Shown here: in pieces, positions 44,927 through 57,850 of the stretch
Numbering within the stretch: position 1 is the stretch's first letter
Layout: each line of letters opens with the position of its first letter
From: Zhongshania aquimaris
GTDB taxonomy: Bacteria; Pseudomonadota; Gammaproteobacteria; Pseudomonadales; Spongiibacteraceae
Assembly: GCF_019312595.1 (NCBI RefSeq)
Contig: NZ_JAHWDQ010000001.1
Span: forward strand, 1,614,926 to 1,678,925
Length of the DNA: 64,000 bases
Reading direction: 5' to 3'
Notes under the pieces: model-generated
Told to the model about the DNA's origin: nothing
The model's database searches: none
Seen by the model: only the letters and a program-made list of their open reading frames with translations
Translations under genes and position numbers: made by a program

Positions 44927-45316
44927 TCAGTGACTAATCATCCAGGGTCGTTGAGAGGGGAAAACCTTGCTGCCGTCCGCCATATAAATCGCCTTCTGGC
45001 GAAGGCTGCTGCGATCCGGGTGAGCGGTGTGGTCGCCGCAGCCACAACCTTTCCTGGCTGCCTCGTGGGCGCGGCGCTGAGCCTGATCTTCCCTGTAGTC
45101 CACTGTTGAAAAAATCGGCTGATGTACTGCCTTTTCATTTTTTGTCATTGCTTGGCGTCGTGCTGGCGACATCGCCAACACTTCGGGGGGAATCATAATC
45201 ACCCGCGCACTCAGCTTGCCGCAGCTGGGGCAAGCACAGGGCATTGCTGCTTGCTCCATGCTGGCTAGCTCATGAAACAAACCGTGTTCATTGCATTTGT
45301 AGTCGTATACCGGCAT
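44927..45316 (-). CDS. fmdB: FmdB-type zinc ribbon protein
   Basis: About 129 aa from the ATG at 45316 with GGAGG six bases ahead. The N-terminus is the FmdB zinc ribbon: MPVYDYKCNEHGLFHELASM and CACPSCGKL, two Cys pairs (one replaced by C-N-E-H). A second Cys cluster (GCGCGDH) appears near residue 92. FmdB proteins are proposed regulators or maturation factors of amidase operons in methylotrophs. It follows fmdA on the same strand, 140 bases apart, in the known fmdA-fmdB order. Confidence 0.85.
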   Translation of the reverse strand: MPVYDYKCNEHGLFHELASMEQAAMPCACPSCGKLSARVIMIPPEVLAMSPARRQAMTKNEKAVHQPIFSTVDYREDQAQRRAHEAARKGCGCGDHTAHPDRSSLRQKAIYMADGSKVFPSQRPWMISH

Positions 45317-45459
45317 CACCTGCCTCCCATTTTATAAAGCAATGATTAACACAGGACATTTAATCAACGCTTCCCAAACTATTGAATGGCGTGCCCGTGT
45401 TGCTGTTGCGCAACTCTATTTTGTACGGGCACGCCCAGTCTCTTCCCTCGTCTTTACCG

Positions 45460-46689
45460 CTACAGATCCGGTGACAGCGGCACATCTACCGTGCCGTCCA
45501 CCACCTTGGTGGGACCGTCGGCATTGGGCTGCATATCAAAGTCAAAGATATCGGTGGGCAGCCACAAAGTCGCACAGGCATTCGGTATGTCAACCACCCC
45601 GCTGATATGTCCCTGCACCGGCGCGACCCCGAGTATGGTATAGGCCTGCGCTCGGCTATATCCAAACTTGGTCATATACTCGATGGCATTTAAGCAGGCT
45701 TGGCGATAGGCAATATGCACGTCCAGGTAATGCTGCTTGCCACCCTCGTCGACCGAGATACCTTCAAAAATAAGATAGTCGTCATACTTAGGCGTGATCG
45801 GGCTGGGTTTAAAGATCGGGTTTTTAATGCCGTATTTCTTCATACCGCCTTTAATCAAATTGACCCGCAGGTGAATCCAACCCGCCATTTCAATAGCACC
45901 GCAGAAGGTGATTTCGCCGTCGCCCTGACTAAAGTGAAGATCGCCCACACTCAAACCAGCGTCTTTGACATACACGGGAAAATACACTTTGGCACCGCGC
46001 GATAAATCTTTAATGTCACAGTTGCCACCGTGCTCTCTTGGCGGCACTGTACGAGCGCCTTCGGCGGCGGCTGCTTTTGCTGCATCACCGGTCATACGCC
46101 CCATGTGCGCAGTATCAGCATAAGGTAAGGTGGCCAATGCGGGAACACGATCAGGCTCGGTATCGTACAAGCCCTTTTCACGCGTGTTCCACTCGTCCAG
46201 CATTTCACGGGAAGGCAGACAGCCAATCAAACCGGGATGGATCAAACCCGCGAATTCGACATTGGGTACATGGCGAGATTTGGTGAACATGCCATTGAAA
46301 TCCCAAATTGACTTTTGCGCCTCTGGAAAATGTTCGGTTAGAAATCCACCGCCATTTTGCTTTGAGAAAAATCCATTAAAACCCCACTGGCTTTCCTCGA
46401 AGGTGCCGATATCTAAAATATCCACTACTAATAAATCGCCGGGTTCAGCCCCCTCAACACCCACTGGACCAGACAAGAAATGGACTTTACTTAAATCGAC
46501 ATCACGCACATCATCGGCGGAGTCATCATTGTTAATCTGCCCACCAGTCCAATCTACACACTCAATTTTAAAGTCATCACCGGGCTTAACCATTGACACC
46601 ATCGGTATGTCTGGATGCCAACGGTTATGGATCATGTCGTTGTCGTATGCCGATTTACTCAAGTCTACTTTGATGATTGTTTCAGCCAT
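45460..46689 (-). CDS. fmdA: Formamidase/acetamidase FmdA
   Basis: 409 aa, with GGAG before the ATG. Family signs: a long N-terminal beta-rich domain (RWHPDIPMVSMVKPGD, DWTGGQI), DLLVVDILDIG, HPGLIGCLPSREML, PPREHGGNCDIKDLSRGAKVYFPVYVKDAGLS and GDLHFSQGDGEI, the metal-binding core of the zinc-dependent FmdA/AmdA family. It hydrolyses formamide (and other short amides) to ammonia and formate in the cytoplasm. With the ABC importer genes further along the same strand it would let the cell use amides or urea as a nitrogen source. Confidence 0.95.
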   Translation of the reverse strand: MAETIIKVDLSKSAYDNDMIHNRWHPDIPMVSMVKPGDDFKIECVDWTGGQINNDDSADDVRDVDLSKVHFLSGPVGVEGAEPGDLLVVDILDIGTFEESQWGFNGFFSKQNGGGFLTEHFPEAQKSIWDFNGMFTKSRHVPNVEFAGLIHPGLIGCLPSREMLDEWNTREKGLYDTEPDRVPALATLPYADTAHMGRMTGDAAKAAAAEGARTVPPREHGGNCDIKDLSRGAKVYFPVYVKDAGLSVGDLHFSQGDGEITFCGAIEMAGWIHLRVNLIKGGMKKYGIKNPIFKPSPITPKYDDYLIFEGISVDEGGKQHYLDVHIAYRQACLNAIEYMTKFGYSRAQAYTILGVAPVQGHISGVVDIPNACATLWLPTDIFDFDMQPNADGPTKVVDGTVDVPLSPDL

Positions 46690-47015
46690 CGCTCTTCTCC
46701 GGACCAGTCATAGAAAATTCGAGACAACACCACGAAACTATTGTTATATCTTGCCTAGCGCCCGATATGACTCAACACAGTGATTGCCATGGCCTTACTA
46801 TCGGTAATCACGGACAATACGGGTATTAGTTAATTGCCCTTGGCGCTACGTTAAATGACGTATTCTTAGCAATGTAAAAACGCATCTAGCTAGTTTCAGC
46901 AGGCCCCATACCCACAATTCGACGGCTGGAAAGTTAATTCCATATCATCTTCATACGATGTTTCGACGTATAGAATTTTTCGGTCTTCTTTAGAAAATTG
47001 ACCCAGGTGAATCTC
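46690..47015. other. Divergent intergenic region of fmdA and the lipocalin gene
   Basis: About 325 bases. It must carry two promoters. I searched for sigma-54 -24/-12 elements and did not find a convincing pair. No RNA gene seen. Confidence 0.35.
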
Positions 47016-47548: not shown

Positions 47549-47930
47549 CTATTGTAGCGCTTCAACCACTATGCGCTCATTCTGAATAAAGGCAATAAAC
47601 TCGCGCTCGTCTGGCTTAGCCAGCATAGCGCGAGCTACCGCCGGCTTCCAGTCACGACGTAAGCGCCTTGCAAAGTGCCTAGCACCGTAACGCGCATCAT
47701 ATTTTTCAACTAGATAATTTCGACAGTTAAGATCTAGCTGCAGCGCACCCTGACGTTTGTCCAGTCGCAGCTGCAATTTCGCCAACTCAAGATCTAGAAC
47801 ACGGGTTAAATGCTCTCGCTGCAAATGCCGAAATGACTAAATTGCATCTATACGGTTTATGAATTCAGGATCAAACTTTTTATGCAGGGCGCGCTCAACA
47901 ATACGTCGCTCTTGCTTGCCCCGCCCCAAA
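47549..47930 (-). pseudogene. C-terminal fragment of a Clp-family AAA+ ATPase
   Basis: Read on the minus strand from about 47930, one frame gives a Clp tail: [24 protein letters not shown] (sensor-2 area FxPEFxNRID), then an in-frame TAG at 47839-47837, then SFRHLQREHLTRVL, RQGALQL and EKYDARYGARHFARRLRRD (the YGAR box) to 47549. Together these cover the D2-small region of ClpA/B/C-type unfoldases. The N-terminal part and both Walker motifs are missing and a stop breaks the frame, so no working ATPase remains. Confidence 0.85.
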
Positions 47931-47934
47931 AAAC

Positions 47935-48158
47935 GTCGCCATCATCTCCTCGTTATCGTACATAATGCCCATGGTGCTGTATTCAGGGAAGACCACCAGA
48001 TCCATGCCAGGCAGACCGATCTTCGTGCCCTTAATCATATCCGCTATATTGCGGGCATTTTCCAAAACTTGCTCGCGGGTGTGCAACCGCGGCATCTTGT
48101 AATTGACGACAGCGACACCGACCGTATCCGGGCTGCTGGAAATATCACCGTGTCTCAT
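47935..48158 (-). pseudogene. amiE: 5' fragment of aliphatic amidase amiE
   Basis: From the ATG at 48158 about 75 codons match the start of aliphatic amidase: [42 protein letters not shown] and [21 protein letters not shown]. The latter includes the nitrilase-family Glu of the catalytic triad (FPEYS). Homology stops abruptly after MMATFF, at a run of six T and a GC-rich stretch (about 47921-47936), and the frame dies within ten codons. The catalytic Lys and Cys are absent. The usual full length is about 340 aa. It follows urtE by 48 bases on the same strand, as expected for an amide operon. Confidence 0.9.
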
Positions 48159-48206: not shown

Positions 48207-48896
48207 TCACACTGACAAATAGGCCTTTATTTTGTCGGTATCGACTTCTTCACGCAGGTTTTCGTGAATAAAGTTGCCTTTGTCGATCACAATGATGCGA
48301 TCTGCGACCGTCATGGTAAAACTCAAAACTTGCTCAGACACAATGATAGTAATGTCCCGCAATTTTTTAATTTCATTTAAGACATTAGCGATATCTTTAA
48401 TAATGGAGGGCTGAATCCCTTCGGTGGGCTCATCTAGCAACAATACCTTAGGATTGGTCACTAATGCCCTGGCAATAGCTAACTGTTGTTGCTGACCACC
48501 AGAAAGGTTTCCGCCTTTACGCTTGCGCATTTCTGCCAATACCGGAAACAGAGCGTAGATATCATCGGGAATCTTTTTAAGTTTGGAGACCTCCATGCCG
48601 GTTTCGATATTTTCCTGTACTGTTAACGACGGAAATATCATTCGCCCTTGCGGCACATAGGCAATGCCGCTCTCGACACGCTGGAAACTTTCCTTTTGGG
48701 TAACATCAACACCGTCAATACTGATGCTGCCTTCTGACGTGGGCAGAATACCAATCAACGATTTAAACAGCGTGGTTTTTCCCATACCATTCCGCCCCAT
48801 GATGGCAAGCGTCTCATTTTTCGGCACGGTAAAATCCAAGCCGTGAATAACTTCACTCTGGCCGTAACACACTTTCAAATTAGATACGTTTAACAT
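48207..48896 (-). CDS. urtE: Urea/amide ABC transporter ATP-binding protein UrtE
   Basis: 229 aa. Walker A GRNGMGKTT, Q-loop PQGRMIFPSLTV, signature LSGGQQQQLAIARAL, Walker B LLLDEP then TEGIQPSII, which is typical of UrtE/LivF-type proteins. It would power import with UrtD. Last intact gene of the urtABCDE set on the minus strand, 54 bases after urtD. The set could carry urea or short-chain amides; the fmdA and amiE remnant favour amides. Confidence 0.93.
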   Translation of the reverse strand: MLNVSNLKVCYGQSEVIHGLDFTVPKNETLAIMGRNGMGKTTLFKSLIGILPTSEGSISIDGVDVTQKESFQRVESGIAYVPQGRMIFPSLTVQENIETGMEVSKLKKIPDDIYALFPVLAEMRKRKGGNLSGGQQQQLAIARALVTNPKVLLLDEPTEGIQPSIIKDIANVLNEIKKLRDITIIVSEQVLSFTMTVADRIIVIDKGNFIHENLREEVDTDKIKAYLSV

Positions 48897-48950: not shown

Positions 48951-49703
48951 TTAGTGACCCAAATACACTTCAATTACCTTAGGGTCTTTTTGCACTTCTT
49001 CCATTTCACCTGCGGCGAGAATTTTACCTTGATGCAATACCGTGACCTTGTGGGCAATACGCGCCACAAACTCCATATCATGTTCAATAACCAGCACCGA
49101 GCGACCCTGACTAATTTTGTTAAGCAGCTCTGCCGTTTGCTCGCGCTCCTTTACACTCATGCCAGCAACGGGCTCGTCCAGCATCAATAGCTGTGGGTCT
49201 TGTATCAGCAACATACCAATTTCAAGCCACTGCTTTTGGCCGTGGCTGAGCAACCCCGCCTCGGTATCCAAGAAATCGACCAACATGATTTGACTAGCTA
49301 CTTCCATGATCTTGCTGTGCACTTCATCGTCGTGTTTAAACATCAACGAACCAAAAACACCGCGTCCGCGAGGATAGGAGATCTCGAGATTTTCCATCAC
49401 ACTGAGATTTTCGTAGATCGAAGGCGTCTGAAATTTACGGCCCACGCCCGCTCGAACGATCTCGTGCTCAGATAAATTGGTGAGTTCTTTATTTAAAAAT
49501 TTGATACTGCCTGAGGTGGATTTGGTTTTTCCGCAAATCAAATCCAATACCGTGGTTTTACCTGCGCCGTTCGGGCCAATAACGACATGGAGTTCATTTT
49601 TATCTAGATAGAAGCTCAATGAATCAACGGCTTTAAAGCCATCAAAGGACACCGTTAAATCTTCAATCGCCAGAGTAAAATCTGTGTTGGTAGACATATT
49701 CAT
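48951..49703 (-). CDS. urtD: Urea/amide ABC transporter ATP-binding protein UrtD
   Basis: 250 aa. Walker A GPNGAGKTT, GRKFQTPSIYENLSV, a degenerate signature (LSHGQKQWLEIGMLL), Walker B LMLDEPVAG and MSVKEREQTAELL, all as in UrtD/LivG-like proteins. The start overlaps the urtC stop by one base, so they are coupled. Works as a heterodimer with UrtE on the cytoplasmic side. Confidence 0.93.
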   Translation of the reverse strand: MNMSTNTDFTLAIEDLTVSFDGFKAVDSLSFYLDKNELHVVIGPNGAGKTTVLDLICGKTKSTSGSIKFLNKELTNLSEHEIVRAGVGRKFQTPSIYENLSVMENLEISYPRGRGVFGSLMFKHDDEVHSKIMEVASQIMLVDFLDTEAGLLSHGQKQWLEIGMLLIQDPQLLMLDEPVAGMSVKEREQTAELLNKISQGRSVLVIEHDMEFVARIAHKVTVLHQGKILAAGEMEEVQKDPKVIEVYLGH

Positions 49704-50860
49704 TAGTTGGCCCCCTCGAGCTTGCCATCAACGCTTGTCGATTCGATTTTTCCCTTAGCAAAAAAGCGCTTAAGGAAGGCAAAACGTTTAGTGATGTGAT
49801 GGCCGTAGTCCTCCCACAAGCCAGCCAAACCGTTTGGAAAGAACATAACAACGGCAATAAACAAGCCGCCCATTAAGAACAACCAAAGTTCTGGAAAGGA
49901 TTCGGAAAATGCGGTTTTGCCAAAGTTAATCAACAAGGTGCCGTATACTGCGCCGATTAAAGACATACGCCCACCGATGGCGGCAAAGATCACCATTTCG
50001 ATTGAAGGCACAATGCCGACAAAGGACGGTGACATAAACCCAACTTGCAGAGTAAACATCGCACCGCCGATCGCCGATATCATCGCGGCGAAACAGAAAA
50101 TAAAGATTTTGAAGTTGGCGACGTCGTAGCCCGAGAAACGCACCCTATCTTCTTTATCACGCATCGCTAGCAGTAGGCGACCAAACTTACTGGTTAAGAT
50201 AAAGCGTGACGCAATGATTACCCCAAGAAGAAGAAAGCAGTTAATAAAGTAGAATAAGTTTTTTGCGCTGTCGGAGGTGATGTCCCAGCCATTCAAGGTA
50301 CGCAGGTCCGTGATGCCATTAATACCGCCAGTCAGGCCCTGCTGACCTACAATTAATACCGTTAGAATAACGGAGATAACCTGGGTAATAATGGCGAAGT
50401 AAACGCCACCGACTCGGCGCTTAAACATCGCCGCGCCAATGATATATGCAAATATGGTTGGCACCACGAGCACAGCAATAATGGTAAATGTAAAGCTATT
50501 GAAAGGCATCCAGAACATGGGCAGTTCGGTAAGCTGATTCCAGTCCATAAAATCAGGAATACCGGGGGTCGACTGAATGGCGGTATTTTCTGGCGACGAG
50601 GCCTCTAACTTTAAAAACATCGCCATGGCGTAACCGCCAATACCAAAGAAGATACCCTGACCCAAACTTAAGGTGCCACCGTAACCCCAGAGCAAGACTA
50701 AACTCACCGCCGCAAACGCGTAGGTTAAATATTTACCAACCAAATTCAGTCGAAACGAATCCAAGAAAAGTGGAAAGACAACCAGGATTAGCGCTGCGAG
50801 GATGCAAAACCCTACCATGCCCTTTTTATCGCCAAATAATTTTTCGTAAACGAAGCTCAT
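49703..50860 (-). CDS. urtC: Urea/amide ABC transporter permease UrtC
   Basis: 385 aa with about nine to ten helices. GGTLSLGQGIFFGIGGYAMAMFLKL near residue 58 and GLTGGINGITDL are hallmarks of LivM/UrtC permeases, as is MRDKEDRVRFSGYDVANFKIF, the EAA-like loop that contacts the ATPases. Forms the inner-membrane channel with UrtB. 54 bases after urtB. Confidence 0.93.
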   Translation of the reverse strand: MSFVYEKLFGDKKGMVGFCILAALILVVFPLFLDSFRLNLVGKYLTYAFAAVSLVLLWGYGGTLSLGQGIFFGIGGYAMAMFLKLEASSPENTAIQSTPGIPDFMDWNQLTELPMFWMPFNSFTFTIIAVLVVPTIFAYIIGAAMFKRRVGGVYFAIITQVISVILTVLIVGQQGLTGGINGITDLRTLNGWDITSDSAKNLFYFINCFLLLGVIIASRFILTSKFGRLLLAMRDKEDRVRFSGYDVANFKIFIFCFAAMISAIGGAMFTLQVGFMSPSFVGIVPSIEMVIFAAIGGRMSLIGAVYGTLLINFGKTAFSESFPELWLFLMGGLFIAVVMFFPNGLAGLWEDYGHHITKRFAFLKRFFAKGKIESTSVDGKLEGAN

Positions 50861-50914: not shown

Positions 50915-51838
50915 TTAGCGGCGAACCTTGCTGGCAAACAAGCCTTCAGGTTTGAACATCAAAATTATTACCAAGGTGAGCAAGGTAAAGACTTTGGCCA
51001 TTGATCCACTGATAAAAAATTCGAGGATTGATTGTGCTTGAGCAATTGAGAAAGCCGACGCGATGGTTCCGAACAAACTGGCCGCACCACCGAACACCAC
51101 AACCATAAACGTATCGACGATATACAAGGTTCCCGTCGTGGGCCCCGTAGACGCGATAGTGGTAAATGCCGCACCCGCCATGCCCGCTATGCCGCAGCCC
51201 AGCGCAAAGGTATAGCGATCAACTTTTTTAGTATTGATACCCACCGCGCCAGCCATTAATCGATTCTGGGTGGTGGCGCGAACACGCAAACCCCAACTGG
51301 ATTTAAACATCAGATAAAACACTGCCAAGGTCGTAAATATGGTCAAGCCCAGAACAAACATGCCGTTAATGGGAATATCGATCATATCGGTGGCGGGATA
51401 AGCTCCCATTAACCAATCCGGCAAAGTGGGACTCACTTCCCGGGCGCCAAAGATCGACCGGTAGGACTGCTGCATAATCAAGCTCAAACCCCAGGTCGCC
51501 AACAGCGTATCTAAAGGGCGCTTGTAGAGATGCCTTATCAAGACAAATTCTGCTAGATAGCCCAATATGCCGGCAACTAAGAAGGCCGCCACTATCGAGA
51601 ACACAAAATAGTAGGGCATAAATGCCGGAATATAAGTTTCTGTGAGCGAAGAGATGAGGTAGGTGGTATATGCCCCCGCGGCCATGAATTCGCCGTGGGC
51701 CATATTGATAACCCCCATCTGCCCAAAAATAATTGCGAGCCCCAAGGCCATCAGCAACAGTACGCTGAACAAGCTGATGCCGGCGAAGCCCTGCATTGCG
51801 AAGATCGCGCCTAACTCGTCGTAGCTATAACCGCCCAT
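50915..51838 (-). CDS. urtB: Urea/amide ABC transporter permease UrtB
   Basis: 307 aa, eight helices. GQMGVINMAHGEFMAAGAYTTYLI (about 39-62), LLATWGLSLIMQQ and ATTQNRLMAGAVGINTKKVDRYTFALG are LivH/UrtB motifs. Many UrtB proteins have a long N-terminal extension of 200 aa; this one has none, which is nearer the amide-operon variety. Follows urtA by 132 bases. Confidence 0.93.
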   Translation of the reverse strand: MGGYSYDELGAIFAMQGFAGISLFSVLLLMALGLAIIFGQMGVINMAHGEFMAAGAYTTYLISSLTETYIPAFMPYYFVFSIVAAFLVAGILGYLAEFVLIRHLYKRPLDTLLATWGLSLIMQQSYRSIFGAREVSPTLPDWLMGAYPATDMIDIPINGMFVLGLTIFTTLAVFYLMFKSSWGLRVRATTQNRLMAGAVGINTKKVDRYTFALGCGIAGMAGAAFTTIASTGPTTGTLYIVDTFMVVVFGGAASLFGTIASAFSIAQAQSILEFFISGSMAKVFTLLTLVIILMFKPEGLFASKVRR

Positions 51839-51970: not shown

Positions 51971-53218
51971 TTATTGATAACCTTCTGGGAATGGATCTGG
52001 CTCGATCAATTCAGAGGTGTAGACCACTTCTGCTTGGCCATCTTTCTTCCACATACCTACCCGCGCCTTACTCCAAAGATGGTGGTTAGGATGCAGCTTC
52101 ACATAACCTTCTGGTGCGGTAGTTAGCTCGATATCGCCTTCTTCCGAAGCTTTAACAACCGCATCAACATCAAAGGTACCAGCCTTCTCGACAGCCGCTT
52201 TCCACAACCAAGGACCCAGGTAAGCGGCCTGTGTTACGTCACCGATAACACTGTCTTCGCCCCACATTTCTTTAAAGGCTTTAACAAAGGCTACGTTGTT
52301 AGGATTATCCTGGCTTTGGAAATACTTCATGATGGAGTAGAAGCCTTCGAGGTTTTCACCGCCGATGCCCAACACTTCATCTTCCGTTACCGAGATGGTT
52401 AGCAAAGTTTGCTTCTTGGAGGTGATACCCGCCGCTTTAAGCTGTTTAAACCACGCTACGTTACTGCCGCCTACCACTGCTGCGTAAATCACATCAGGCT
52501 TTTTCAGACGGATTTTGTTGATCACCGAACCAAACTGGGTATCGCCCAGCGGCTTGTACTCTTCACCCACGACCTTGCCACCCAACACGTTTTCTATGTG
52601 TTTACGGGCAATTTTCATGGAGGTACGTGGCCAGATGTAGTCAGAGCCAATTAGATAGAAGGTTTTAGCGCCCTTCTCTTTAGCCACCCAGTTCAAACCG
52701 TCTAGAATCTGTTGGGTTGCTTCCTGGCCGGTGTAAATTACGTTTTTAGACTGCTCTAGTCCTTCGTAAAACGTGGGGTAGTAAAGCAAGCCATTCTCTT
52801 TCTCAAACACGGGCAGCGCCGCTTTACGCGAAGCTGATGTCCAGCATCCGAATACGGCTGCCACCTTATCGTTCACTAATAACTTGCGACTTTTCTCAGC
52901 AAAAGTTGGCCAATCGCTGGCGCCATCTTCCTGAATGATTTTGATTTGGCGACCTAAAATACCGCCTGATTCATTGATTTGTTTGATGGCCAGCTTTTCG
53001 GCTTCTTGAGCACCGGTTTCACTGATCGCCATGGTCCCCGTCAGCGAGTGCAAAATGCCCACGGTAACAGTGTCATCGGTAACCGCCTGCCCAGTGGTGG
53101 TGGCAGGTGCCGCCCAACTTAACTGCGATGCTAGTATAATACCCAGCGGTAGTGCGCCAAGGGCACGAACTACCTTGCGGCGCCCCCAAGAACGCTGATT
53201 ATCGGATTTATCACTCAT
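51971..53218 (-). CDS. urtA: Substrate-binding protein UrtA of the urea/amide importer
   Basis: About 415 aa from the ATG at 53218, chosen because AGGAG stands 8 bases before it; an upstream frame reaches 53290. A signal with twin Arg (GRRKVVRALGALPLGIILA, then AAPA) suggests Tat or Sec export. The mature part is type I periplasmic binding: TVGILHSLTGTMAISE, QINESGGILGRQIKIIQEDGASDWPTFAEKSRKLL, YPTFYEGLEQSKNVIYTGQE, YLIGSDYIWPRT, features of UrtA/FmdD. It binds urea or amides in the periplasm. First gene of urtABCDE. Confidence 0.93.
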   Translation of the reverse strand: MSDKSDNQRSWGRRKVVRALGALPLGIILASQLSWAAPATTTGQAVTDDTVTVGILHSLTGTMAISETGAQEAEKLAIKQINESGGILGRQIKIIQEDGASDWPTFAEKSRKLLVNDKVAAVFGCWTSASRKAALPVFEKENGLLYYPTFYEGLEQSKNVIYTGQEATQQILDGLNWVAKEKGAKTFYLIGSDYIWPRTSMKIARKHIENVLGGKVVGEEYKPLGDTQFGSVINKIRLKKPDVIYAAVVGGSNVAWFKQLKAAGITSKKQTLLTISVTEDEVLGIGGENLEGFYSIMKYFQSQDNPNNVAFVKAFKEMWGEDSVIGDVTQAAYLGPWLWKAAVEKAGTFDVDAVVKASEEGDIELTTAPEGYVKLHPNHHLWSKARVGMWKKDGQAEVVYTSELIEPDPFPEGYQ

Positions 53219-53426
53219 CGTTACTTCTCCTACCCTACGGTTGCTTGATTGACAGCAAACAGTCTCCTTAGAAGTTCCCCGCTGCACCATGAGGCGAATG
53301 CTCCCCCCCGCTAAGTTAAATGACGTATACCGTCAGCGTGGTGGTCGAGATAGCGTCAAGATTACTGAAGCAAACGTGTGTGTATGTTTTGTATTGGCGA
53401 GAACGCAGCCCGCGACTATCCGATGG

Positions 53427-53442
53427 TGGCATCGATCCTGCT
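53427..53442 (+). promoter_or_regulatory. Sigma-54-like -24/-12 site before the NCS1-kinase gene
   Basis: TGGCATCGATCCTGCT has GG and GC 12 bases apart and shares 9-10 of the conserved positions with TGGCACG-N4-TTGCA. It points toward the gene at 53577. Nitrogen-linked sigma-54 control would fit an amide-use island. Chance occurrence is possible. Confidence 0.35.
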
Positions 53443-53576: not shown

Positions 53577-56500
53577 ATGAACCCCCAGCAACGGGTATTC
53601 CGCATTCGCCGCAAATACAATCGCTGGGTAGCGAATGAAACACTGGAAGACTACGCGCTGCGCTTTACTGCCAAAAGTGCTCGGCGCTGGTCTTTGGCGC
53701 GGGTATCGAATACGGCGCTGGGCGCCATTTCGTTTCTCGCCCTCGAGGCGATTGGCGGCGCAATCACTCTGAGCTATGGGTTCAGCAACACCGTGGCGGC
53801 CGTAATCGCGGTTGGTATTATTATCTTTCTGACCGGCATTCCCATTTGCTATCACGCGGCGCGGCGCGGGGTAGACATAGATTTGCTCACCCGCGGAGCG
53901 GGCTTTGGCTATATTGGCTCTACCATTACTTCGCTCATTTACGCGTCGTTTACGTTTATTTTCTTCGCGCTGGAAGCCGCCATCATGGCGCTGGCCTTGG
54001 AACTTACATTAGATATACCGCTTAAATATGGTTACTTTATAAGCGCTATTGTTGTCATTCCGCTAGTTACCCACGGCATTACTCTTATCAGTCGTTTTCA
54101 GGTTTGGACCCAGCCACTGTGGGTGATACTGCAAGTACTGCCACTCGTATGTATCGTTTTTCAGTCTGAGGACGCCTTTCAAAATTGGGTGGCCTTTACG
54201 CCACCAGATGGTGACCCCAATTTTAATATTCTCGCCTTCGGTGCCGCCTCTGCGGTAATTTTTTCACTCATCGCGCAAATTGGAGAGCAGGTCGATTTTT
54301 TGCGCTTTTTACCCCATCAAGAAAAACCCAATAAGCGCTGGTGGCTCGCGCTGATAGCGTCGGGCCCGGGCTGGATTATAAGCGGCTCAATTAAAATTTT
54401 GATCGGATCGTTTTTAGCGGTACTCGCGCTAAGCCACGGCATATCCTTTAGCGAAGCCTCAGACCCCAATCGCATGTACCTAACCGCTTTTAGCTACCTA
54501 AGCAGCTCACCCCAGCTCACACTTTTTTTAGTCGGCGTTTTTGTTATTTTGTCGCAGCTTAAGATTAATGTCACAAACGCATATGCTGGCTCGATTGCCT
54601 GGTCTAATTTCTTCTCCCGCCTGACTCACAACCACCCCGGCCGAGTGGTGTGGCTGGTATTTAATGTCGCCATCGCGCTCATGTTAATGGAGCTTGGCAT
54701 TTACCGCGTTCTAGAGGAAATTCTCACCGCCTACTCTATTATTGCTTTGGCGTGGGTTGGGTCACTTGTCGCCGATCTCGTAATTAATCGCCCACTCGGC
54801 CTGCGACCCACGGCGATGGAATTCAAACGCGCCCACCTCTACGACATCAACCCTGTCGGCGTAGGATCTATGATTATCTCTTCAACCTTAGGGTTTCTAG
54901 CCCACCTGGGGCAATTTGGAGAAACCGCACAGGCACTCGCGTCTTTTATTGCACTAGGCAGTACCTTCATCTGTGCTCCACTTATTTGCTGGCTCACAAA
55001 GGGCAAGTTCTATATCGCCAGAGAACCGGTACTGGCCAGCAGCAAAATTTCGCTGCGCTGCTGTATTTGTTACCATCATTTTGAAAGTGAAGACATGAGC
55101 CACTGCCCAGCGTACGCTGGCGCAATCTGCTCACTGTGCTGCTCGCTGGACAGTCGCTGCCATGATATGTGCAAAACAGACTCACGCATGGCAGAGCAAC
55201 TAACTAGTGCATTGAGCTTTCTTATACCCAATGCATGGATTCGCTCACTCAATACTCGCACTGGCCACTTTATCGGTCTCTTTACCTTAATTAGCTTTAT
55301 GATCGCCAGCGTATTAGCGCTGGTTTATGTACAAATCACCATCGATGAGGGCATGGAGCGAAGTTTAGCCGCTAGTGCGCTGAGTAATGTCTTTTTTATT
55401 CTGCTCATTGTGTCGGGAATTCTCGCGTGGATGTTTGCCTTAGTACACGATAGTAGGCGTGTTGCGCAGGAAGAGTCCCAGCGTCAAACCGAATTACTAG
55501 TTACTGAAATAGAAGCCCACAAACAAACCGATATGCAATTACAGCAAGCCAAGGAAATTGCAGAGTCTGCCAACCAAGCAAAAACCCGCTATCTCACCGG
55601 TATTAGTCATGAGCTGCGCTCACCGCTAAACGCCATATTGGGCTATGCACAATTATTAGAAAAAGATCCGAACATTCCCGAAAATAGACTTGATGCACTT
55701 AAAGTTATTAGACGCAGCAGCGAACATTTAGCTGACTTGATAGAAGGCTTACTCGACATTTCCCGCATCGAAGCGGGCCGACTCGAACTGTCAACGTCAG
55801 ACGTGAACCTGGGCAATTTGCTAGATCAAATTATTAGTATGTTTCAAGTTCAGGCCCAGGCCAAAGGTATTGGCTTTAGCTTTGACCGCCTAACACCACT
55901 GCCCGAAACCGTCAAAACAGATGAAAAACGCCTGCGCCAGATTCTGATAAACCTTATTTCCAATGCCATCAAATATACGCCGGAAGGACGTGTTAATTTC
56001 ACAGTGAGCTATCGCAACCAAGTCGCCGAGTTCCTGATAAACGATACCGGTATCGGCATTGCCGCCGACGATATAGAACGCGTCTTTAAGCCCTTTGAAC
56101 GCGTTCGCAAACCCGGCTCACCACATATTGCCGGCACCGGTTTAGGACTCACAATTACTCGCCTGCTAACCGACATTATGGGTGGCGACATTGCCATACA
56201 CAGCCAGGTCGGCGTGGGTAGTGAAGTTAAGGTGTCGCTTATGCTGAGCAGCACCGACCGCCTCGCTGTTTCCACACCCAACGAACGAAAAATCATCGGC
56301 TACGAGGGCGAAGAGCAGACCCTATTTATTGTCGACGACGAACCTACTCATCGCAGCCTGCTTAGCGACATGCTCAAGCCGCTGGGCTTTAACGTTATAT
56401 CAGCACCTGACGGCAATACCTGTCTGGATATGCTGCGCTACTGCGATCCCCTACCAAAGATATTCCTATTAGATATCGCCATGCCAGGCATGAGTGGATG

Positions 56501-56945
56501 GGAGCTCGCTGCCGCTATTCGCGAGCGTATTCATCACGCCACGATTATTATGATCTCGGCAAACGCTGCCGAAGTGACACCAGAAAGTAGCGGCGTGCCA
56601 CCCCACGATGCCTATTTATTCAAACCGATTCGAATTACGCAGGTACTCGATTACATCGCCAAACACGCCGGTATAGTCTGGCAGTACGAGTCCGAGGAAC
56701 ACCGAGCCGCATCGATTTCTGCTGCGGGTCAGCTAGTTAGTCTGAACGCACCACTCTCCGACGAACACCGCCGAGAACTTATTCAGCTAGCAAAAATAGG
56801 CTATGCCAAAGGCATCAAGCACTGCCTGGAAAATATTTCCAAACAAGGCAACGCCGATCCTACCACGCTAAACACCTTACAAGAGCTTGCCGCTGGATTT
56901 CAGTTTACTGCTCTAATTAACGCATTGGAAAACAGCACGTCATGA
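53577..56945 (+). CDS. NCS1-type permease fused to a hybrid histidine kinase, with Cys-rich linker
   Basis: 1122 aa. Residues about 1-470 look like a nucleobase:cation symporter-1 (cytosine/allantoin permease) with about 12 helices (YALRFTAKSARRWS, IAQIGEQVDFLRFLP, KINVTNAYAGSIAWSNFFSRL). A Cys-rich segment (about 494-535) has at least ten Cys with His, probably a metal site. Two more helices and a coiled coil (about 625-660) lead to the kinase: ISHELRSPLNAILGY with His678, NLISNAIKYTP, NDTGIGIA and GTGLGLTI. A receiver domain follows (phosphoacceptor Asp966 in LLDIAMPG). It should sense or import a nitrogen compound and phosphorylate the regulator encoded next. Overlaps that gene by 4 bases. 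Confidence 0.93.
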   Translation: MNPQQRVFRIRRKYNRWVANETLEDYALRFTAKSARRWSLARVSNTALGAISFLALEAIGGAITLSYGFSNTVAAVIAVGIIIFLTGIPICYHAARRGVDIDLLTRGAGFGYIGSTITSLIYASFTFIFFALEAAIMALALELTLDIPLKYGYFISAIVVIPLVTHGITLISRFQVWTQPLWVILQVLPLVCIVFQSEDAFQNWVAFTPPDGDPNFNILAFGAASAVIFSLIAQIGEQVDFLRFLPHQEKPNKRWWLALIASGPGWIISGSIKILIGSFLAVLALSHGISFSEASDPNRMYLTAFSYLSSSPQLTLFLVGVFVILSQLKINVTNAYAGSIAWSNFFSRLTHNHPGRVVWLVFNVAIALMLMELGIYRVLEEILTAYSIIALAWVGSLVADLVINRPLGLRPTAMEFKRAHLYDINPVGVGSMIISSTLGFLAHLGQFGETAQALASFIALGSTFICAPLICWLTKGKFYIAREPVLASSKISLRCCICYHHFESEDMSHCPAYAGAICSLCCSLDSRCHDMCKTDSRMAEQLTSALSFLIPNAWIRSLNTRTGHFIGLFTLISFMIASVLALVYVQITIDEGMERSLAASALSNVFFILLIVSGILAWMFALVHDSRRVAQEESQRQTELLVTEIEAHKQTDMQLQQAKEIAESANQAKTRYLTGISHELRSPLNAILGYAQLLEKDPNIPENRLDALKVIRRSSEHLADLIEGLLDISRIEAGRLELSTSDVNLGNLLDQIISMFQVQAQAKGIGFSFDRLTPLPETVKTDEKRLRQILINLISNAIKYTPEGRVNFTVSYRNQVAEFLINDTGIGIAADDIERVFKPFERVRKPGSPHIAGTGLGLTITRLLTDIMGGDIAIHSQVGVGSEVKVSLMLSSTDRLAVSTPNERKIIGYEGEEQTLFIVDDEPTHRSLLSDMLKPLGFNVISAPDGNTCLDMLRYCDPLPKIFLLDIAMPGMSGWELAAAIRERIHHATIIMISANAAEVTPESSGVPPHDAYLFKPIRITQVLDYIAKHAGIVWQYESEEHRAASISAAGQLVSLNAPLSDEHRRELIQLAKIGYAKGIKHCLENISKQGNADPTTLNTLQELAAGFQFTALINALENSTS

Positions 56946-57850
56946 ATACACCTCGCGGAAAAAAAGATGTCGTACTTATTGTTGACGACTCACCCGACAC
57001 CCTGAGCATGCTTAACGACACCCTTGATCAAGCCGGCATTACCGTATTGGTTGCATTAGAAGGTGCTCAAGCACTCACCATAGCGGCCAATATTACGCCA
57101 GACGTTATTCTGATGGACGCCTTGATGCCGAATATGGACGGCTTTGAAGCCTGCCGGAGATTAAAAGAAAATCGGGATTTAGCTCATATCCCCGTGATTT
57201 TTATGACCGGACTTAGCGATACCGAAAGTATTGTTAAGGGCTTTGCCGCCGGCGGTGTCGACTACATTACCAAGCCGGTCAAGGGCGATGAGCTAATCGC
57301 CAGAATGCGCGCGCATTTGAACAACGCCCGCTTAACCTTAAGCGCAAGAGTAGCTTTAGATAGCGCCGGACAATTTCTATTTTCCGCCGCCTCCGATGGC
57401 AGCCTCTTATGGGCAACACCGCAAGCCTATCACCTACTTGAAGAGGCCGGTTTAGACAGCGACTGGCTAAACGAAAATCTACCGACACAATTACGTCAAT
57501 TGCTGGCTCCGCATTTTAATAAAGAAAAAGGGCTATTGATTAAAGCGACAGATAAACCACTGGAAATACGCTATATAAGCCAAACCGGTAACGACGAATA
57601 CCTGCTGCAACTCATTGATTTAGAGCGACCATCCGACGTTGATCGGCTGCGCTCCGCTCTGCCTATAACTGACCGCGAATCAGAGGTTTTACTGTGGATT
57701 GCCCACGGTAAAACCAATAGAGAAATCGGCACCATTCTGAGCATGAGCCCGCGGACTGCAAATAAACATTTAGAGCAAATTTTCCGCAAGCTGAACGTTG
57801 AAAACCGAACGGCGGCGGCGGTTATTGCACTGAAGCACTTGCAGACGTAA
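56942..57850 (+). CDS. Response regulator with receiver and LuxR-type HTH
   Basis: 302 aa. Receiver domain 9-125 with VDDS acidic pair, Asp59 phosphoacceptor in ILMDALMPNMDG, Thr in FMTGLSD and Lys in ITKPVKG. A middle region of about 100 aa is unassigned. LuxR helix-turn-helix 235-300: LPITDRESEVLLWIAHGKTNREIGTILSMSPRTANKHLEQIFRKLNV. ATGA overlap with the kinase gene makes this a cognate pair. It probably activates urtABCDE or fmdAB, given location; inference. Confidence 0.92.
   Translation: MNTPRGKKDVVLIVDDSPDTLSMLNDTLDQAGITVLVALEGAQALTIAANITPDVILMDALMPNMDGFEACRRLKENRDLAHIPVIFMTGLSDTESIVKGFAAGGVDYITKPVKGDELIARMRAHLNNARLTLSARVALDSAGQFLFSAASDGSLLWATPQAYHLLEEAGLDSDWLNENLPTQLRQLLAPHFNKEKGLLIKATDKPLEIRYISQTGNDEYLLQLIDLERPSDVDRLRSALPITDRESEVLLWIAHGKTNREIGTILSMSPRTANKHLEQIFRKLNVENRTAAAVIALKHLQT

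What the first reader, a model, noticed from the sequence alone, without database searches (positions are those of the whole stretch)
53577..57850. Permease-histidine kinase fusion with a Cys-rich linker, divergent from an amide/urea importer
One 1122-aa protein joins an entire NCS1-like transporter (about 12 helices), a segment of about 40 residues with ten or so Cys plus His, a kinase core and a receiver domain. It overlaps a LuxR-type regulator gene by 4 bases. Sensor kinases fused to transporters are known in outline (for example SLC5-type in CbrA and NCS1-like ones in pseudomonads), so the class is not new. The Cys-rich stretch between permease and kinase, and the pairing with urtABCDE-fmdAB, suggest a two-input sensor (substrate flux or occupancy, plus metal or redox state). 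The ligand is inferred to be an amide, urea, allantoin or nucleobase.
Basis: partly seen in the sequence, partly recalled or inferred. Interest (0 to 1): 0.72.

Follow-up and report, generated by a model that had tools for sequence, protein, structure and literature searches.

The report
Transporter-kinase sensor for urea and amides
A bacterial sensor protein that joins a whole membrane transporter, a cysteine-rich knot and a signalling kinase sits, across many Proteobacteria, beside the genes for taking up and splitting urea or small amides, and it probably switches those genes on when these nitrogen sources appear.

Summary

New here: a 16-bp palindrome, TACGTCAWWTGACGTA, before urtA and fmdA (window 53312-53327, 46847-46862), the likely regulator site, found at 14/16 or better in 29 of 62 loci; and a sigma54-like element before the sensor gene on its own strand. 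Stand-alone permeases in Acinetobacter, one beside urease genes, carry a four-Cys form of the segment, so it looks like an old structural metal site of a transporter tail, extended in the sensors.

Best reading: a urea/carboxamide transceptor controlling its own uptake and hydrolysis genes under nitrogen limitation. A second metal/redox input is possible but unsupported. A new variant of a known kind; ligand, metal and signalling are untested.

The parts
53577..56945 (+). sensor gene: NCS1-fold transporter - Cys segment - two TM helices - HisKA - HATPase_c - REC - helical tail, 1122 aa
53652..55022 (+). NCS1-fold transporter part, residues 26-482
55059..55172 (+). Cys segment, residues 495-532; eight invariant Cys; modelled (block pLDDT 68-80) as strands 492-494, 501-503, 507-510, 515-518 and helix 519-524 (treble-clef-like order)
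55257..55451 (+). two extra transmembrane helices, residues about 561-590 and 595-625, running into the kinase coiled coil
   Evidence: helices of the model; assignment as membrane helices by eye
55581..55778 (+). HisKA; His678 invariant in 16 rows
55917..56243 (+). HATPase_c
56325..56657 (+). receiver domain; Asp966 and Lys1016 invariant in 16 rows
56942..57850 (+). response regulator, REC + LuxR-type DNA-binding domain; overlaps the sensor gene by 4 bp
53427..53442 (+). sigma54-like -24/-12 element TGGCATCGATCCTGCT upstream of the sensor gene, on its strand
53312..53327 (.). proposed regulator site TAAGTTAAATGACGTA (2 mismatches to TACGTCAWWTGACGTA), about 94 bp before the likely urtA start
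46847..46862 (.). second proposed regulator site TACGTTAAATGACGTA (1 mismatch), about 158 bp before fmdA
51971..53290 (-). urtA; likely start codon at 53216-53218 after a GGAG, with a twin-arginine-like leader (by eye)
50915..51838 (-). urtB
49703..50860 (-). urtC
48951..49703 (-). urtD
48207..48896 (-). urtE
45460..46689 (-). fmdA, formamidase (NF045496, 789.9 bits, cut-off 500)
44927..45319 (-). fmdB-like ORF, 130 aa, identified by eye; the FmdB-like protein of L218 matches Pfam Zn_ribbon_8

Best explanation
The gene encodes a transceptor-type hybrid sensor kinase for urea and/or short-chain carboxamides (formamide, acetamide). The NCS1-fold domain binds the compound in the transporter pocket. 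Its conformational change passes through the cytoplasmic Cys knot, which probably holds one or two Zn ions and is mainly a rigid coupler, and through two extra membrane helices to the HisKA dimer. The kinase phosphorylates the co-encoded REC-LuxR regulator, with the built-in receiver as relay or sink. The regulator binds TACGTCAWWTGACGTA before urtA and fmdA and switches on uptake and hydrolysis. The sensor gene has a sigma54-like promoter element, so it is probably made mainly under nitrogen limitation (NtrC, inferred; not searched for). Shown by computation: fold, invariant Cys, gene neighbourhood, palindrome, promoter-like element. Inferred: ligand, metal, direction of signal, phosphate path, regulator binding.
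For: Fold. Co-occurrence: transporter and Cys profiles hit the same 62 places in 57 of 397 genomes. Neighbourhood, all 62 loci: amide-type UrtA 37, canonical urea UrtA 13, FmdA 38, AmiE 18, UreC 10, AmiS/UreI 2; any of these 59 (BLASTP at 50-60% identity or more, within the fetched stretch). An E. coli copy sits beside a formamidase of the CN-hydrolase family. In G045 the sensor follows urtABCDE and urease genes, with an exact palindrome before urtA. Palindrome: TACGTCA in 26 of 45 upstream regions against 1.2 expected; 14/16 or better in 29 of 62 loci against 0 or 1 in ten dinucleotide shuffles; exact form in 8 of 57 sensor genomes, nine sites, all at the sensor, urtA or fmdA (positions), and in 1 of 340 genomes without the sensor; reversed-pattern control 2 hits in 397 genomes. 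Sigma54-like element scoring 13 or more on the sensor strand in 21 of 46 loci, opposite strand 1 of 46. CodB-mapped positions T126, Q234, K329, I330 and N331 are identical in 48 amide-context and 8 urea-context rows. A stand-alone relative lies upstream of urease genes.
Against: No ligand, metal or expression data. The window's genome has urease elsewhere with no palindrome of 2 or fewer mismatches there, so urea versus amide is open for this strain. 33 of 62 loci have no palindrome at 14/16, among them all eight loci of genus g146 (L262-L269) and the two without a LuxR-type regulator (L166, L167). At 3 or fewer mismatches the palindrome is not enriched in the whole own genome (40 sites against 57 for the reversed control), and two such sites in the window arise in 13 of 100 shuffles. 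Other CodB-mapped positions (129, 230, 231) and T333 vary in the urea-context rows. The CodB alignment is weak (hhalign probability 7%, TM1-3 only). No invariant His was seen in the C-terminal tail, so the phosphate path is unclear. One locus with full flanks (L259) has none of the urea or amide genes sought.
Confidence: 0.72

Rival explanations
1. Two-input sensor: the transporter part reports the nitrogen compound and the Cys segment binds a labile metal or Fe-S cluster and reports metal or redox state.
For: Eight invariant Cys in a stretch directly before the kinase, cytosolic by inference; four of them (510, 522, 528, 532) are absent from the two Acinetobacter stand-alone permeases read.
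Against: C495, C498, C518 and C521 are kept as CxxC...CxxC in those stand-alone permeases, which have no kinase, as expected of a structural zinc site. Three of the four non-significant PDB sequence hits are zinc-finger proteins or CRIPT (E 0.29-0.8). Metal or redox genes in the neighbourhood were not sought systematically.
Confidence: 0.15
2. Nucleobase, hydantoin or allantoin sensor, in line with classical NCS1 substrates.
For: Nearest solved folds transport cytosine and hydantoins.
Against: The Phe/Trp of TM6 that sandwiches the base aligns with Leu231, though the alignment is weak. 59 of 62 neighbourhoods hold urea or amide genes.
Confidence: 0.06
3. The transporter part does not bind a ligand itself but senses activity of the UrtBC-UrtDE importer next to it (flux sensing).
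For: A UrtA gene lies within the stretch in 50 of 62 loci.
Against: Nine loci have urease or FmdA-AmiS genes but no UrtA hit within the stretch (seven with UreC, plus L166 and L167).
Confidence: 0.07

Closest known systems
CbrA / CrbS / RpuS (SLC5-STAC histidine kinases)
   Same: a whole LeuT-fold transporter fused to a histidine kinase through a small cytoplasmic domain that in CbrA docks under the transporter; CbrA has a lysine in the Na2 site (passages of PMC13022988), as K329 may be here
   Different: SLC5 rather than NCS1 family; four-helix STAC bundle rather than a Cys knot; ligands or regulated pathways are histidine, acetate and pyruvate (abstract starts; passages)
KsAmt5 (Amt-histidine kinase of Kuenenia)
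   Same: transporter domain turned sensor for a nitrogen compound, fused to a kinase (abstract start of PMC5764959; passage of PMC8534201)
   Different: Amt family, ammonium; no Cys segment mentioned in what was seen
CodB / Mhp1 (NCS1 symporters)
   Same: fold over residues 22-507
   Different: no kinase; Na+ site Thr278/Thr279 and base-stacking Phe204 (passages of PMC9379551) align with K329/I330 and L231 (weak)
Plasmid urea transport system (UTS) of Klebsiella ST307/CG307
   Same: very likely the same gene set: the papers name UrtA, UrtB, UrtC and AmiF on the plasmid (passages); a Klebsiella plasmid lists urtB, urtD and urtE beside a copy of this sensor (incomplete gene table) and E. coli NCTC11129 lists urtABCDE, formamidase, sensor and regulator
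   Different: term counts over the main texts find no 'histidine kinase' in either paper, no 'sensor' in one and no 'sensor kinase' or 'two-component' in the other
amiE-fmdA-fmdB-urtABCDE cluster of Pseudomonas veronii
   Same: same catabolic genes; authors suggest that this Urt transports formamide and note that amiC and amiR are missing (passages of PMC13209695)
   Different: no sensor kinase named in the passages; 'histidine kinase' and 'two-component' count 0

Membership tests
NCS1 transporters | LeuT-type fold closest to CodB/Mhp1 | tested here: met
NCS1 transporters | match to Pfam PF02133 (a library threshold, not a biological feature) | tested here: not met
   0 of 16 rows at E 1; linked only through a stand-alone relative that does match. 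Called NCS1-fold, a divergent branch
NCS1 transporters | aromatic pair around the substrate and Na2-site Thr pair | tested here: inconclusive
   aligned as F129/L231 and K329/I330, by weak sequence alignment
Hybrid sensor histidine kinase | HisKA with His, HATPase_c, REC with Asp and Lys | tested here: met
SLC5-STAC kinases | SLC5 transporter part | tested here: not met
SLC5-STAC kinases | STAC four-helix bundle between transporter and kinase | tested here: inconclusive
   the stretch is modelled as short strands plus one short helix with Cys; no STAC model was run
Treble-clef zinc modules | CxxC knuckle, hairpin, helix starting at second CxxC, bound Zn | tested here: inconclusive
   order of elements fits the recalled pattern; metal not testable here
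Transceptor (transporter fold used as receptor) | ligand-dependent signalling | not testable with these tools
   needs kinase or reporter assays

The most novel reading that the evidence does not exclude
A previously undescribed, phylum-wide family of bacterial urea/carboxamide transceptor kinases, in which a structural zinc tail of an NCS1-type urea permease was enlarged into a binuclear Cys8 coupler between transporter and kinase. It controls, through one conserved palindrome, two unrelated catabolic routes (urease, formamidase/amidase) with their importers, and travels on enterobacterial conjugative plasmids with the urt genes.
Probability: 0.45. Interest if true: 0.75.

Novelty: new variant of a known kind. 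Interest (0 to 1): 0.62.

Why it matters
No transporter-fused urea or amide sensor kinase turned up in the papers listed by ten literature searches. This family is common (57 of 397 genomes), has a fixed anatomy and now a predicted DNA site, so ligand, coupling and regulon can be tested directly. It would add a further transporter family to the SLC5- and Amt-fused kinases, and it puts a candidate regulator next to the plasmid-borne urea transport genes of enterobacteria, for which the two papers looked at name no sensor kinase.

Tried and rejected
Sequence-only route to NCS1: Pfam and PDB profile searches gave nothing usable for the permease part, and hhalign to CodB gave only a weak TM1-3 alignment; the fold search settled it. 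First AlphaFold run on the whole protein with 16 rows was poor (pLDDT 65.7) and was not used for fold claims. A search for residues separating amide-context from urea-context sensors found one weak column (Tyr386/Phe); the grouping was mine, the 48 'amide' rows being all rows not put in the urea (8) or unassigned (8) group. Plain alignment of intergenic regions was mostly unaligned; k-mers worked. The position-weight matrix was trained on regions that it then scored (49 of 63 above its 99% null), so I rest; the 62 loci overlap the discovery set at least in the window and G045. Held-out check: 13 of 21 regions reach 13/16, but three of these (L216, L217, L218) were fetched because the exact scan found them; without them 10 of 18, null 0.3% per region. 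The sigma54 consensus is recalled; 39 of 59 regions score 12 or more against 13.9 in shuffles, and at 10 or more the excess is small (55 against 45.4). G133 has two exact palindromes but no sensor and none of the genes sought near them: chance or another use. In the tree the stand-alone Acinetobacter permeases hang at an unresolved fork with the sensors, so which came first is open. Papers on ammonia sensing (passages) and two kinase reviews (passages) held nothing on this family. The literature searches list at most 20 papers each, judged by title and start of abstract.
Full report
What is there. The window holds an ORF at 53577-56945 (+, 1122 aa) and, overlapping by 4 bp, a 302-aa regulator ORF at 56942-57850. 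Pfam places HisKA at 669-734, HATPase_c at 781-889 and a receiver at 917-1027; the second protein is REC + LuxR-type HTH. The N-terminal 555 residues match no Pfam family at E 1 in the window protein, and only four unrelated weak ones among 16 rows. Divergently lies urtABCDE (each above its NCBIfam cut-off), then fmdA and an FmdB-like ORF (by eye).

The Cys segment. The window has Cys at 495, 496, 498, 510, 518, 521, 522, 528 and 532. All but 496 are invariant in 16 rows and in 64; the His are not. In an even draw of 397 genomes of the phylum a profile of this segment hits 57 genomes at 62 strong places (67 bits or more), with one further hit at 22 bits. A profile of the permease alone hits strongly at the same 62 places, plus weak hits to other membrane proteins in four genomes (G230, G216, G231, G342). 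The two parts were therefore never found apart in this sample, and the eight-Cys pattern is present in 62 of 62 loci. Two Acinetobacter records, found through the plasmid collection, add a twist. In A. lwoffii a stand-alone 535-aa permease, 42% identical to the sensor's N-terminal part, ends in CxxC...CxxC and lies directly upstream of urease genes (ureE, F, G, J, D, A, B, C). In A. baumannii a similar 548-aa protein is divergent from a full sensor and regulator. These keep Cys 495, 498, 518 and 521. The order of modelled elements (CxxC, hairpin, helix at the second CxxC) is that of a treble clef (recalled). My inference is that four Cys make an old structural zinc site of the transporter tail and that the sensors added a second site (510, 522, 528, 532). 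The tree does not resolve whether the stand-alone form is ancestral.

The neighbourhood. The best 80 of at least 589 named relatives have a regulator homologue in 78, a UrtA homologue in 72 and FmdA in 60; this sample is biased to close relatives. The unbiased set of all 62 loci gives: amide-type UrtA 37, canonical urea UrtA 13, FmdA 38, AmiE 18, UreC 10, AmiS/UreI 2; at least one of these in 59 of 62. Of the three without, two are on short stretches (L168, 4.8 kb; L263, 9.9 kb) and one (L259) has other neighbours. A LuxR-type regulator gene on the same strand within 400 bp is found in 53 of 62; of the other nine, L216 ends at the sensor and L166 and L167 have another set-up, the rest were not looked at. 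In those two short variants without receiver (885 and 894 aa) a separate protein that looks like REC-kinase and an OmpR-type regulator lie nearby (by eye), and the neighbours are fmdA and an AmiS/UreI channel. In E. coli NCTC11129 the formamidase next door is a CN-hydrolase, a family unrelated to FmdA (recalled). Urea and short-chain amides are what these genes have in common.

Operator and promoter. K-mer counts in 45 sensor-upstream regions give TACGTCA in 26 (1.2 expected) and the dyad CGTC-N4-GACG in 15 (0.2 expected). TACGTCAWWTGACGTA is matched at 14/16 or better in 29 of 62 loci of up to about 18 kb, against 0 or 1 in ten dinucleotide shuffles. An exact scan of the 397 genomes finds TACGTCAWWTGACGYA in 9: eight of the 57 with sensor and one (G133) of the 340 without; the reversed pattern gives 2 hits. 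In the eight, all nine sites lie at the sensor, urtA or fmdA (positions). In the window two sites of three or fewer mismatches exist, 46847-46862 before fmdA and 53312-53327 before urtA (two or more by chance in 13 of 100 shuffles). In the whole genome four sites have two or fewer mismatches, two of them these; at three mismatches the total (40) is below the reversed control (57), so weak matches elsewhere mean nothing. In G224 one site precedes urtA and another fmdA; in G045 and G438 the site precedes canonical urtA of a urea/urease cluster. The other 33 of 62 loci have no such site, including all eight of genus g146: there the regulator may use another sequence. On the sensor's own strand a -24/-12-like element (recalled consensus) scores 13 or more in 21 of 46 loci, on the other strand in 1 of 46; a sigma54 gene is present in the window's genome.

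Ligand. CodB's base is sandwiched by Trp108 and Phe204 and its sodium held by Thr278/Thr279 (passages of PMC9379551). Through conserved anchors these align with F129, L231 and K329/I330, invariant or nearly so in 64 rows. The alignment is weak, so this is suggestive only: no aromatic sandwich, and a lysine at the sodium site. CbrA too carries a lysine there (passages of PMC13022988). T126, Q234, K329, I330 and N331 are identical in amide- and urea-context sensors, while 129, 230, 231 and 333 vary somewhat in the urea context; this leans towards one shared ligand type, the O=C-NH2 group. The window's genome has urease on another contig, so for this strain urea and amide both remain open; the palindrome before fmdA favours amide.

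What is known. Kinase-fused transporters are described for SLC5-STAC proteins and for Amt (abstract starts; passages). Ten searches of the open full-text library listed no paper that by title or abstract start treats an NCS1-kinase fusion or a urea/amide transceptor kinase; subscription papers are not held. For Pseudomonas veronii an amiE-fmdA-fmdB-urtABCDE cluster is described, with formamide suggested as Urt substrate and amiC/amiR missing (passages of PMC13209695). Papers on the plasmid urea transport system of Klebsiella ST307/CG307 name UrtA, UrtB, UrtC and AmiF and no sensor kinase (passages and term counts), while 342 of the 532 plasmid records with a relative of the sensor's N-terminal part are Klebsiella.

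Verdict. A known kind of idea (a transporter used as a kinase input) in a distinct, coherent and apparently undescribed family with a strong functional prediction. New variant of a known kind; interest 0.62.

Noticed in passing
window 47549-48158 (-): Between fmdA and urtE lie a fragment of aliphatic amidase amiE (87-aa ORF, NF009802 over residues 1-75) and a fragment of an AAA ATPase (ClpB_D2-small). In L218 the same place holds a full-length amiE and a 356-aa AAA ATPase gene, so the pair looks decayed here.
   Followed up: partly
L166:6634-11156, L167:5651-10347: Sensor variant without receiver (885/894 aa), near a separate protein that looks like REC-kinase and an OmpR-type regulator (by eye), beside fmdA and AmiS/UreI; a rewired version of the same input.
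   Followed up: partly
L177:8147-13423, L178:7992-9599: Acinetobacter: stand-alone four-Cys permease divergent from the sensor, or upstream of urease genes; a candidate urea permease of NCS1 type.
   Followed up: partly
L179:6876-9590: Rhodococcus NCS1-like permease (26% identical) with its own CxxC...CxxC tail beside a CN-hydrolase gene; suggests that Cys-tailed permeases for nitriles or amides exist outside Proteobacteria.
   Followed up: no
L174, L175: Klebsiella plasmid pKP1-19 and E. coli NCTC11129 chromosome: sensor and urt genes near clpK-hsp20 heat-resistance genes and IS elements.
   Followed up: no
window 56694-56942 (residues 1040-1122 of the sensor): Helical tail after the receiver, with conserved positions in 16 rows but no invariant His, so not a plain HPt domain; role unknown.
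   Followed up: no
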